Assembly (NCBI GenBank): GCA_016875225.1 | Contig: VGRW01000036.1 | Coordinates: 1 to 35,042, forward strand | Length of the DNA stretch: 35,042 nt | Reading direction: 5' to 3' | From: Deltaproteobacteria bacterium | GTDB taxonomy: Bacteria > Myxococcota_A > UBA9160 > SZUA-336 | Part shown: piece by piece, positions 8,812-34,686 of the stretch | How the letters are laid out: the number at the start of each line of letters is the position of its first letter | Position numbering within the stretch: the first letter of the stretch is position 1 | Program-made: the position numbers and the translations under genes | The notes under the pieces: model-generated | What the model saw: the letters and a program-made list of their open reading frames with translations, nothing else | The model's database searches: none | What the model was told of the DNA's origin: nothing

Positions 8812-8852
8812 AGATGATCTACAAGGATCCGAGGAACCCTGGGAGAGAGACG

Positions 8853-11093
<2,241 letters not shown>

Positions 11094-11097
<4 letters not shown>

Positions 11098-17542: not shown

Positions 17543-17683
17543 CCCCGGAAGGGCGTGCCTCTGTGGCCGTCGACGTTCGATCCGCCCTCGCTCACACAGA
17601 CTCCATGCCGCAGGACCGTCGACCGACGTAGAACTCCGAGAGGCGCGCTACCATGCGGCGATGAACCGAGACAGGGAGACCCG

Positions 17684-18727
17684 ATGAGCGAGGTGCGCCT
17701 CACCGAGCTCGCGCCTGGCGGGGGTTGAGCCCGCAAGCTCGGCGCCGAGGACCTGGTCCAGGTCCTTCGCGGGCTCGCGCCCTTCGATCACCCGTGGGTC
17801 TCCGGCGAGGTCGGACCCATGGAGGATGCCGCGCTCGTCTGCCCGGAGAAAGGCCCGGGACTCGTCGTGACCGTCGACTTCATCACGCCGATCGTCGACG
17901 AGCCGGAGGCCTACGGGGCGATCGCGGCCGCGAACTCGCTCTCCGACGTGTACGCGATGGGCGGCGAGCCGATGGTGGCGCTGGCGGTCTGCGGCTTTCC
18001 GGACGATCGGCTGGCGAAGGACGTGCTCGCGCGGATCTTCCGCGGCGGGCGCGACAAGGCGGCCGAGGCCGGCTGCGCGATCGTGGGCGGGCACACCGTG
18101 GTCGATTCGGAGCTGAAGTACGGGCTGGCCGTGATCGGCACGGTCGATCCCGAGCGCGCGCTGCTGCAGACGCGTGCGCGCGCGGGCGACAAGCTGGTGC
18201 TGACCAAGCCGATCGGCACCGGGATCGCGGCGCAGGCAATCAAGTCGGGGATGCTGGCGGCGGAAGATCTCTCGCAAGTGATTGCGCAGATGAGCCAGCT
18301 CAATCGCGCGGCCAAGGACGCGGCGCTCGCCTGCGGCGCGCACGCGGCGACCGACGTGACCGGCTTCGGGCTGCTCGGCCATCTACACAATCTGGCGTCG
18401 GCCTCGGAGCTCGCGGCGCGCGTGCGGGCGTCGGCCGTGCCGGTGCTCGAGTTCGCGCGCGGGCTCGCGCGCGCCGGGAAAGTGCCCGGCGGCACGCGGC
18501 GCAACCTCGCCTGGGTCGAGAAGGCGGCGAGCTTCGCTTCCGGGACTGCGGACTTCGAGAAGCTGATCCTCTGCGACGCGCAGACCTCGGGCGGGCTCCT
18601 GATCGCTTTGCCGCCGGAGCGCGAGGCGGAGCTGCTCGCGGATCTCGCGCGGCGCGGCACGGCCTGCGCGGCGACGATCGGCGAGCTGGTTCCGGGCGCG
18701 GCCGGGGCGCTCGAGATCGCGAGGTGA
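17684..18727 (+). CDS. selD: Selenide, water dikinase SelD, itself a selenoprotein (UGA = Sec15)
   Basis: SelD makes selenophosphate from selenide and ATP for selenocysteine and selenouridine synthesis. The ATG at 17684 has AGGGAGA six bases upstream and begins MSEVRLTELAPGGG. In-frame TGA at 17726-17728 follows, then ARKLGAEDLVQVL. The TGA sits exactly at the catalytic Cys position, and Lys18 three residues on is the conserved catalytic lysine, so it reads as selenocysteine. The rest is full-length (347 residues), with the ATP-site segments GPMEDAALVC, TVDFITPIVDEP, AAANSLSDVYAMGG and IVGGHTVVDSELKYG, and with ATDVTGFGLLGHL. A bacterial SECIS-like structure follows the TGA. Read as a normal stop, the gene would lose its catalytic N-terminus. 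Its stop overlaps the next GTG. Confidence 0.93.
17727..17776 (+). promoter_or_regulatory. Bacterial SECIS element in selD
   Basis: An outer stem pairs GAGCCCGC (17727-17734, including the last two bases of the UGA) with GCGGGCTC (17769-17776). The apical stem is AGGACCT (17748-17754) with AGGTCCT (17760-17766), closing the five-base loop GGTCC. The loop starts 26 bases after the UGA and begins with G, in line with what is known for SelB-recognised bacterial SECIS hairpins. An alternative local palindrome, CTCGGCGCCGAG, overlaps the apical stem. Confidence 0.8.
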
Positions 18728-31118: not shown

Positions 31119-33197
31119 GTGAATCACAGCGAGATCGTCAGCTTCATCTGGGGTGTCGCGGACCTGATCCGGGACACCTTCAAGCGGGGCAAGTACCAGG
31201 ACGTGATCCTGCCGCTCACCGTGCTGCGACGTCTGGACTGCGTCCTGGCGCGCACGAAAGACACGGTCCTCGCCAAGCAAGCGGAGCTGCGGGGCAAGAA
31301 GCTCGAGAATCTCGACCCGCAGCTGCGAAAGATCGCGGGCTTCGCGTTCTACAACACGTCGCGATAGGACTTCGAGAAGCTGCTCGCCGACGCCCCGCAC
31401 CTGGCGGCGAACCTGCGAAACTACATCGCCGGCTTCAGCGGGAACATGCGCGAGGTGATCGAGAAGTTCGACTTCGACAACACCATCAGCAAGCTCGACG
31501 AGGCGGGGCTGCTGTTCCAGGTGCTCGAGCGCTTCAAGAACATCGACCTTCACCCGGACGCGGTCGACAACCCGACGATGGGAACCGTCTTCGAAGAGCT
31601 GATCCGTAAGTTCAACGAGGCGCTGAACGAGAACCCGGGCGAGCACTTCACGCCGCGCGACGTCGTGCACCTGATGGTCGATCTGATGCTCGCGGGCGAC
31701 GAGCCCGCGATCCGCGCCAAGAAGGCGATCCGCACCGTGTACGACCCGTGCTGCGGATCGGGCGGGATGCTGATGATCACCAAGGAGCACATCACCGTCG
31801 GCCTGCGCAAGAACGGCGACGTGCTTCGCCCCGCGATCAATCCGAACGCCGACATCCATCTGTTCGGGCAAGAGAGCGTTCCCGAGACCTGGGCGATCGC
31901 GAAGTCCGACCTGTTCATGAAGGACCCGACCGGCCGCGACGCAGACCACGTCGCGTTCGGCAGCACGCTCTCGAACGACCGCCACGCCGGCCAGAGCTTC
32001 GACTACCTGATCGCCAATCCCCCGTACGGCAAGGACTGGAAGCGCGACGAGGATTCGGTGCGCGCAGAGCACGAGCGCGGTGCGGCCGGCCGCTTCGCTG
32101 CCGGGCTGCCGCGGATCAGCGACGGCCAGCTCCTGTTCCTGCTGCACATGCTCGCGCACGTGAAGACCCCGAAGGACGGCGGCTCGCGCATCGCCATCAT
32201 CATGAACGGGTCGCCCCTGTTCACGGGCGACGCGGGCAGCGGAGAGAGCGAGATCCGCCGCTTCGTCCTCGAGAACGATCTGCTCGAGGCGCTGATCGCG
32301 CTGCCCGAGCAGCTCTTCTACAACACCGGAATCGCGACCTACGTCTGGGTGGTGACGAACCGCAAGGCGCCGGCGCGGAGGGGCAAGGTTCAGCTCGTCG
32401 ATGCCTCGTCGTTCTGGGTGTCGATGCACAAGAGCCTGGGCGACAAGCGGCGCGAGATCCCGATCGAGCGCGCGCAGGAGATCCTGAAGATCCTGGCCGC
32501 GTTCGAGGACGGCGAGACGAGCAAGGTCTTCCCGACCACGCACTTCGGCTACCGCAAGATCACCGTCGAGCGGCCGCTCCGGCTGAACTTCCAGGCGAGC
32601 CCCGAACGGATCGCGCGACTCGAAGACCAGAAGGGCTTCCAGGCGCTCGCGCAATCGAAGAAGAAGGGCGCCGCCGGCGCGAAGGAGCAGGCCGAGGGCC
32701 GCGCACTGCAGGACGCGATCCGCAAGCTCGTTCGTGCGCTGCCCGACACCTGCTTCAAGGACCGCGACGAATTCGAGCGCGCGCTCGATTCCGCCGCGAA
32801 GACCCACGGCCTGAAGCTCTCGGCGCCCGCCCGAAAGGCCATCCTCGCCGCGCTCTCCGAACGCGACGAGACCGCCGTGATCTGCCGCGACGCCGACGGC
32901 AATCCCGAGCCCGACCCCGAGCTTCGCGACACCGAGAGCGTGCCGCTCGCCGAGCCGATCGAGGTCTTCTTCGAACGCGAAGTGAGACCCCACGTGCCCG
33001 ACGCCTGGATCGACACGTCCCGGCGCGACCCAAAGGACGGCCAGGTCGGCCTCGTCGGCTACGAGATCGGCTTCAACCGCTACTTCTACCGCTACACGCC
33101 GCCCCGGCCGCTCGAAGAGATCGAGGCCGACATCCGCGCGATCGAGGGCGACATCGTGCGCATGCTGGCGGAGGTGACGGGGTCCGCTGGAAGCTGA
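31119..33197 (+). pseudogene. hsdM: Type I restriction-modification methyltransferase HsdM, amber codon at position 83
   Basis: The reading frame of 692 codons is that of an N6-adenine methyltransferase subunit. It starts with GTG 31119 (GGAGAA eight bases upstream) and the N-terminal domain FIWGVADLIRDTFKRGKYQD. At 31365-31367 an in-frame TAG interrupts FYNTSR*DFEKLL, where relatives carry Tyr or Phe. The frame then continues intact. SAM motif DPCCGSGGM is at about residues 209-217, NPPYG at 300-304, and the long C-terminal coiled region follows. A single-base change (TAC or TAT to TAG) explains it. Product might arise by readthrough or re-initiation (ATG 31446), but the gene is probably inactive unless the base is an error. 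The partner hsdS lies past the AbiE pair; hsdR is outside the window. Confidence 0.85.
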
Positions 33198-33241
33198 CGC
33201 GAAATGCCGGCACCGAGTCGCTTCGCGCCGACGATTCGAGC

Positions 33242-33289
33242 TGGACAATAGAGTTGACACTTATCCATAAGTGATGTGAATCTTGTCCA
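33242..33289. promoter_or_regulatory. Two concentric inverted repeats with a promoter in front of abiEi
   Basis: The inner arms CACTTAT (33258-33264) and ATAAGTG (33267-33273) and the outer arms TGGACAA (33242-33248) and TTGTCCA (33283-33289) are both perfect and share the same centre (33265.5). A -35-like TTGACA (33254-33259) lies within. A -10 element is weak (about 33277-33282). The start codon of abiEi is four bases after the outer arm, with no ribosome-binding site, so the message may be nearly leaderless. AbiEi proteins bind inverted repeats in their own promoters. Confidence 0.6.
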
Positions 33290-33292
33290 TCC

Positions 33293-33901
33293 ATGGCGAG
33301 CGCCCGACAAGACCGAAAGGTGATCGACGCCTTCCGTCGCAACGGCGGAGTGCTGCGAACCGCGCACGCCCTTCGCCTGGGCGTGCATCGGCGGGATCTC
33401 TACGCGATGCGCGACGCCGGCACCCTCGAGCTCATCAGTCGAGGCGTCTACCGGCTGGCGGACCTTCCGGCTCTCGCCGACCCGGATCTCGTGACCGTGG
33501 CGACGCGCGTGCCGAAGGCCGTGATCGCCCTCGTCTCTGCGCTCCACTTCCACGGGCTCACGACGGAGATCCCCCACCAGGTGAGCATCGCGCTCCCGCG
33601 CGGGACGGCGTCTCCACGGCTCGATTGGCCGCCGCTGCGGGTCTATCGAATGAGCGGAAAGATGTTCAGCTCGGGGATCGAGACCCACGAACGCGACGGC
33701 GTCGCAATCCGGGTCTACGGCTGCGCAAAGACGGTGGCGGACTGCTTCAAGTTCAGAAGCCGCATAGGAATCGACGTGGCCGTCGAAGCTCTGCGAACGG
33801 GACTCGCCGAGCGGAAGTTCACGCCGGCAGAGGTACACCGGATGGCCAAGCTCTGTCGGGTCGACGCGGTCATCCGCCCGTATCTGGAGGCGGTGCAGTG
33901 A
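33293..33901 (+). CDS. abiEi: AbiEi family antitoxin / transcriptional repressor
   Basis: This 202-residue protein has an N-terminal winged helix (DRKVIDAFRRNGGVLRTAHA, RRDLYAMRDAGTLELISRG, VYRLADLPALADPD). A C-terminal domain begins at IALVSALHFHGLTTEIPHQV and contains VYGCAKTVADCFKFRSRIG. This matches AbiEi antitoxins of type IV toxin-antitoxin systems, where the N-domain binds the promoter and the C-domain counteracts the toxin. ATG 33293 follows the concentric repeats closely. Its stop overlaps the GTG of the toxin gene (GTGA), as is normal for this pair. Confidence 0.88.
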   Translation: MASARQDRKVIDAFRRNGGVLRTAHALRLGVHRRDLYAMRDAGTLELISRGVYRLADLPALADPDLVTVATRVPKAVIALVSALHFHGLTTEIPHQVSIALPRGTASPRLDWPPLRVYRMSGKMFSSGIETHERDGVAIRVYGCAKTVADCFKFRSRIGIDVAVEALRTGLAERKFTPAEVHRMAKLCRVDAVIRPYLEAVQ

Positions 33902-34686
33902 GCGACGCCCCGCTCGCGGCGCTGGTGCAATCGATCCAAGCACGGCTCAAGAACGAGGCAGCCGAGACGGGCCGGCCGTTCGTCGAGCTACTCGAGCTCT
34001 TCGCCATCGAGCGCTTCCTGCATCGGTTGGGGCGGTCGGAGCACCGGGAGCACTTCGTCCTCAAGGGGGGTCTGCTCCTTCGTCACTGGCTCGGCGCGGC
34101 GACGCGCCCGACGCGAGACATCGACCTGCTCGGCGCGGCAGGCATGGACGAGGAGCGCCTGCGCGCTCTCCTGCGAGAGGTCCTCGAGGTCGACGTGGAA
34201 CAGGACGGCATAGCCTTCGCTCTCGATTCCATCGTCGTTCGCCGGATCCGAGTCGAGTCGCCGGTGCTAGGCCTGCGCGCGAAGTTCGACGCGCAGCTCG
34301 GCCGCACCAAGCTCCGTTACCAGGTCGACGTTGGACTCGGCGACGCCGTCTTTCCTCCGACGGAAGAGATCATCCCCGGGGGCCTGCTCGGCTTCCCCAT
34401 GGCGAGCGTCCGCGCGTACACCGCGTACACGACCATCGCCGAGAAGCTCGAGGCGACCGCCATTCCCGAGGGGACTCTCGACGGGCTGCGCGTCGCATTC
34501 GCGGAGAGCTCCGCGAACGGCCGACATTGGCGGGCCTTCCTCGAGAAGAGCGGGCTGACAGCGGCGAAGTGCGATCTGCCCGAGACCGTCGCAGAAATCC
34601 GCCGCTTCGCCGATCCGGTTCTCGACGCCGCGAGGGAGCAGCGCTCGCTCGACAAGCACTGGCCGCCCGGAGGCCCGTGGCGATGA
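33898..34686 (+). CDS. abiEii: AbiEii-type nucleotidyltransferase toxin, apparently with an internal deletion
   Basis: This 262-residue protein has the polymerase-beta-like core: VLKGGLLLRHWLGAATRPTR (residues 54-73) then D74-I-D76, and the third acidic residue in YQVDVGLGD (Asp144). After EKLEA (182-186), relatives normally continue with a block containing NSRMKDFYDL. Here the sequence jumps straight to TAIPEGTLDGLRVAFAESSA, which belongs after that block. About 40 residues seem to be missing in frame. Since the missing lysine/aspartate motif is conserved in the toxin family, activity is doubtful. The start is the GTG in the antitoxin stop, and the stop overlaps the hsdS ATG. Confidence 0.82.
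   Translation: MSDAPLAALVQSIQARLKNEAAETGRPFVELLELFAIERFLHRLGRSEHREHFVLKGGLLLRHWLGAATRPTRDIDLLGAAGMDEERLRALLREVLEVDVEQDGIAFALDSIVVRRIRVESPVLGLRAKFDAQLGRTKLRYQVDVGLGDAVFPPTEEIIPGGLLGFPMASVRAYTAYTTIAEKLEATAIPEGTLDGLRVAFAESSANGRHWRAFLEKSGLTAAKCDLPETVAEIRRFADPVLDAAREQRSLDKHWPPGGPWR

What the first reader, a model, noticed from the sequence alone, without database searches (positions are those of the whole stretch)
17684..18727. SelD is a selenoprotein: in-frame UGA at the catalytic position with a SECIS structure
Seen: TGA at codon 15 in the place of the catalytic Cys, with Lys three residues later, an upstream ribosome-binding site and start, and a conserved reading frame on both sides. A nested stem-loop follows, whose five-base loop starts 26 bases after the UGA. 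Known: some bacteria use selenocysteine at this SelD position. Inference: the host encodes SelA, SelB and tRNA-Sec, and other selenoproteins likely exist elsewhere in its genome.
Basis: partly seen in the sequence, partly recalled or inferred. Interest (0 to 1): 0.7.

Follow-up and report, generated by a model that had tools for sequence, protein, structure and literature searches.

The report
Ordinary selenocysteine-containing SelD (selenophosphate synthetase)
This gene makes the enzyme that activates selenium, and its own active site is built with selenocysteine through a re-read stop codon; the reading is well supported, but this is a known kind of selenoprotein in a bacterium that also has the full selenocysteine machinery.

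Summary
The finding holds. Window 17684-18727 encodes a full-length SelD (NCBIfam TIGR00476, 340.6 bits against a cut-off of 125) with TGA at codon 15, the catalytic UxxK position. In 79 homologues, 50 have TGA there, 29 have TGC/TGT, and none has any other codon, so the TGA is not a sequencing error. A bacterial-type SECIS hairpin follows, with loop GGUCC (or GUC) 26-27 nt after the UGA. It meets the published bSECIS rules and is kept in the close Sec-SelD clade at the codons under the strongest synonymous constraint of the gene. It is not unusual on folding energy alone in this GC-rich gene.

Four AhpC/TSA-type genes have TGA at their redox-Cys position, each followed by a SECIS-like hairpin, so at least five selenoproteins are predicted. 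FdhA uses Cys, and no SelU scored above its cut-off.

All 36 genomes with TGA-SelD have SelA; none of the 22 lacking SelA has TGA-SelD. Sec-containing SelD is among the commonest bacterial selenoprotein families: a new member of a known kind, with low surprise value.

The parts
17684..18727 (+). selD, selenophosphate synthetase with Sec15, 347 aa; UGA is also the final stop codon
   Evidence: TIGR00476 340.6 bits and PRK00943 303 bits, both over cut-off; PDB relatives 3u0o and 2yye; AIRS and AIRS_C domains
17726..17728 (+). UGA codon read as selenocysteine (U15 of UxxK)
   Evidence: 50 of 79 homologues TGA, 29 TGC/TGT, no other codon
17748..17768 (+). apical hairpin of the SECIS element, GAGGACCUG-GUC-CAGGUCCUU, 9 pairs; GGUCC loop region 17755-17759
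   Evidence: folding; consensus fold; 95.4% of cells paired in 27 sequences; highest synonymous constraint
17671..17683 (+). ribosome-binding site region (GGGAGA) before the selD start
   Evidence: read from the sequence; start and 14 residues before U conserved in homologues

Best explanation
The locus is selD encoding a selenocysteine-containing selenophosphate synthetase. The ribosome meets UGA at codon 15. SelB with GTP and Sec-tRNA(Sec, anticodon UCA) binds the hairpin whose loop lies 26-27 nt downstream and delivers Sec instead of release factor 2 terminating. The Sec-x-x-Lys loop then converts selenide and ATP to selenophosphate, which SelA uses to make more Sec-tRNA(Sec). SelD is therefore both a product and a supplier of the Sec pathway. 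Shown by sequence: gene, UGA position, hairpin, and the presence of selA, selB and selC. Inferred from established knowledge of the pathway: recoding itself, SelB binding and enzyme activity.
For: Family assignment; TGA/TGC/TGT-only swap at the catalytic position in 79 homologues; all close homologues (60% identity or more) have TGA; hairpin present in the Sec forms, median -11.6 kcal/mol, against -0.8 in the Cys forms, and 12 GC-rich Cys forms show no excess over synonymous shuffles; codons 19-28 after the UGA are the most synonymously constrained stretch of the gene; selA, selB with GTPase and SelB-wing_3 domains, tRNA-Sec 75.6 bits with anticodon TCA; 36 of 36 genomes with TGA-selD have selA, none of 22 without selA has it; four further genes with TGA at a redox-Cys position plus a SECIS-like hairpin.
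Against: The hairpin of this one gene is not better than synonymous shuffles of itself (p = 0.28). Only one of eight pairs shows a two-sided compensatory change. No Rfam family matched in the window at gathering threshold. Nothing experimental was available.
Confidence: 0.97

Rival explanations
1. The TGA is a sequencing or assembly error for TGC/TGT, or the gene is a pseudogene.
For: The genome is a draft in 182 contigs, and another gene in the window, a molybdopterin oxidoreductase, is split by an apparent frameshift near 9500, so local errors are possible.
Against: Independent assemblies of more than 20 relatives with 60% identity or more all have TGA at the same codon; the frame is conserved on both sides; the Sec machinery is present.
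Confidence: 0.01
2. UGA is read as an ordinary stop, and a shorter SelD is made from an internal start such as ATG 17819 (302 aa).
For: That in-frame start exists.
Against: It would lack the catalytic UxxK loop; residues 1-28 are conserved across homologues; synonymous constraint and the hairpin sit exactly between the UGA and codon 28.
Confidence: 0.01
3. UGA is recoded to another residue (Trp or Cys) by a changed code or suppressor, without SECIS or Sec.
For: A frame open through TGA alone cannot tell the meaning of the codon.
Against: Only Cys alternates with TGA; tRNA-Sec, SelA and SelB are present; a codon-composition scan of the window gave only one other candidate in-frame TGA, which looks like an ordinary gene end, so there is no sign of genome-wide reassignment.
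Confidence: 0.01

Closest known systems
Sec-containing SelD / selenophosphate synthetase (TIGR00476; UxxK), listed as an experimentally verified selenoprotein family in PMC13188914
   Same: Family score, UxxK motif, UGA at the catalytic position, SECIS just downstream, Sec machinery in the genome
   Different: Nothing fundamental; the clade has GGUARK where the Escherichia coli Cys form has AGCGCK
Cys-form SelD, PDB 3u0o
   Same: Alignable along residues 3-342
   Different: Cys in place of Sec, no SECIS needed
NADH dehydrogenase-like/SelD fusion, Cys form (PMC4561486)
   Same: C-terminal SelD domain; present in members of the same family and class
   Different: Fused to an N-terminal oxidoreductase domain and carries Cys (GGCAAK) at the catalytic position
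Bacterial SECIS model (PMC13188914, Fig. 2A)
   Different: No difference from the model

Membership tests
Selenophosphate synthetase SelD (TIGR00476) | Full-length match above curated cut-off | tested here: met
   340.6 bits against a cut-off of 125, profile 1-310 of 311
Selenophosphate synthetase SelD (TIGR00476) | Catalytic Sec/Cys-x-x-Lys in the N-terminal loop | tested here: met
   U15-A-R-K18, aligned with Cys in homologues
Selenophosphate synthetase SelD (TIGR00476) | Makes selenophosphate from selenide and ATP | not testable with these tools
   Needs an enzyme assay
Bacterial selenoprotein | In-frame UGA alternating with Cys codons in homologues | tested here: met
   50 TGA, 17 TGC, 12 TGT
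Bacterial selenoprotein | bSECIS with loop 16-37 nt after the UGA, G in the first two loop positions, stem 4-16 bp, energy at most -7.5 kcal/mol (PMC13188914) | tested here: met
   26-27 nt, GGUCC or GUC, 8-9 bp, -12.9 for the apical hairpin
Bacterial selenoprotein | Structure kept by covariation in relatives | tested here: inconclusive
   95.4% of cells paired, but only one pair with two-sided changes
Bacterial selenoprotein | selA, selB and selC in the genome | tested here: met
   selA 512.6 bits, selB 290.5 bits plus SelB-wing_3, tRNA-Sec 75.6 bits, anticodon TCA
Bacterial selenoprotein | Sec in the protein | not testable with these tools
   Needs mass spectrometry or selenium-75 labelling

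The most novel reading that the evidence does not exclude
Within the SelD family the SECIS hairpin has moved: Sec-SelD lineages place its loop at about 17-21, 26-27 or 32-35 nt after the same UGA. This suggests that new SECIS elements replaced old ones under the same codon without loss of Sec, a natural series for studying SECIS turnover.
Probability: 0.3. Interest if true: 0.35.

Novelty: new member of a known kind. Interest (0 to 1): 0.18.

Why it matters
It shows that a raw-sequence reading of TGA as Sec was right, and that a gene caller that ignores recoding would truncate this gene and probably four redox genes of the same genome. It adds a predicted selenoproteome of at least five proteins to a myxococcal-type (Deltaproteobacteria) MAG lineage. 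It does not change what is known about selenium use.

Tried and rejected
Rfam scan of the window: no match. FdhA as a companion selenoprotein: the best hit is a Cys form, CHAST. UGSC family: no match, but no control genome rang either, so absence is not shown. SelU/MnmH: only a short match below cut-off, so no selenouridine trait was found. Codon-composition scan for other in-frame TGA in the window and 60 kb around selA, selB and selC: three candidates, not followed up; they look like ordinary gene ends (my judgement). A covariance model was built but not used, because it is dominated by the SelD coding sequence. Energy alone as proof of the SECIS was rejected after the synonymous shuffle. 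A first reading of the AhpC/TSA loci on the wrong strand was discarded and redone.

Full report
Observation. The sequence reads as described: ATG 17684, TGA 17726-17728 as codon 15, Lys at codon 18, open frame to TGA 18725-18727. With TGA read as a residue the product is SelD: TIGR00476 at 340.6 bits (cut-off 125) and PRK00943 at 303 bits (cut-off 299), AIRS and AIRS_C domains, and sequence relatives of solved structure 3u0o and 2yye, in which the UGA position aligns with Cys.

Is the TGA real? Sixty-two loci encoding relatives were fetched from named species genomes and more from anonymous relatives. In 79 where codon 15 could be aligned, it was TGA in 50, TGC in 17 and TGT in 12. All homologues with 60% identity or more carry TGA, in independent assemblies labelled mostly Myxococcales, Myxococcota or Deltaproteobacteria. 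The 14 residues before the TGA and those after it are conserved. An error or a pseudogene is therefore very unlikely.

The SECIS. The hairpin GAGGACCUG-GUC-CAGGUCCUU lies at 17748-17768; counted as a five-base loop, GGUCC starts 26 nt after the UGA. It meets all four rules of the published bacterial SECIS model (PMC13188914). In 27 close relatives 95.4% of cells pair, against about 20-54% when the partner is slid by 1-3 columns. One pair shows two-sided change (G-C to C-G in three sequences), so covariation support is thin. Codon choice gives better support: codons 19-28 have the highest excess synonymous identity of the gene (0.203 against a mean of 0.058, sd 0.056), with GAG, GAC and GTC nearly fixed. 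Sec forms have stronger hairpins than Cys forms (median -11.6 against -0.8 kcal/mol). Against synonymous shuffles of their own genes, Sec forms average z = -1.22 and Cys forms +0.12, including twelve GC-rich Cys forms at 0.02. These comparisons are not corrected for relatedness. For this gene alone the shuffle test is not significant (p = 0.28), so the energy of a single GC-rich hairpin should not be taken as proof.

The machinery. In the same genome (3.87 Mb, 97.8% complete, 182 contigs) there is one selA (512.6 bits); one selB over cut-off, 630 aa with the EF-Tu-type GTPase, SelB beta-barrel and SelB-wing_3 domains, starting directly after serS; and one tRNA-Sec over cut-off, with anticodon TCA. 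SelD in turn is the only match over the SelD cut-off. SelU is not found over its cut-off.

Other selenoproteins. The best FdhA has Cys (RVCHAST). Among AhpC/TSA proteins, four of thirteen matches contain one TGA, in each case at the redox-active position: FTPGU (L124), WUPFC (L125), WUGC (L126, best match the WAxxUGC ResA-like family NF041054) and GULFC (L132). Each is followed by a hairpin meeting the SECIS rules, at 20-25 nt with -8.5 to -12.1 kcal/mol; that of L126 has the loop GGUCU. This fits the literature statement that organisms without Sec-FdhA keep Sec-SelD (PMC1794560).

Distribution. In 118 related genomes (own included), TGA-SelD occurs in 36, all with selA; the 22 genomes without selA never have it (counted by hand from the tables). 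A genome of the same genus (95% complete) has neither a SelD over cut-off nor selA, so the trait is gained or lost at short range. Many others in the class carry a long open frame (mostly about 740-930 residues) with SelD at the end. In the three read here (L136-L138) it is fused behind an oxidoreductase and has Cys (GGCAAK), the fusion type described in PMC4561486.

Mechanism. The best explanation is canonical bacterial Sec insertion into SelD, and SelD then supplies selenophosphate for SelA. The anatomy is shown; recoding and catalysis are inferred from the established pathway. [quoted passage not shown] The most interesting residue is that the hairpin sits at different distances in different Sec-SelD lineages, which is suggestive but was not put on a tree.

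Noticed in passing
window 8814-11097 (+), break near 9500-9515: A molybdopterin oxidoreductase (FdhA-like superfamily) is continuous over two frames, with a switch near 9510; it looks like a one-base assembly error or a decayed gene.
   Followed up: partly
L124, L125, L126, L132 (own genome contigs C15, C13, C53, C120): Four AhpC/TSA-type genes with an in-frame TGA at the redox-Cys position and a SECIS-like hairpin: predicted further selenoproteins.
   Followed up: yes
L113 15022-18176 (own genome contig C59): selB lies directly downstream of serS; seryl-tRNA synthetase is the enzyme that first charges tRNA-Sec with serine.
   Followed up: partly
L136, L137, L138: Relatives of the same family and class carry SelD fused behind a pyridine-nucleotide oxidoreductase-like domain with Cys at the catalytic position, instead of the stand-alone Sec form.
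   Followed up: partly
L053, L054, L055, L059, L063, L064, L078, L088, L094: In distant Sec-SelD genes the SECIS-like hairpin sits at 20-21 or about 33 nt after the UGA instead of 26-27.
   Followed up: partly
window 31446-34686 (+): A type I restriction-modification hsdM-like gene is followed by two genes that look by eye like an AbiE-type toxin-antitoxin pair, before the start of a further gene at the window's end.
   Followed up: no
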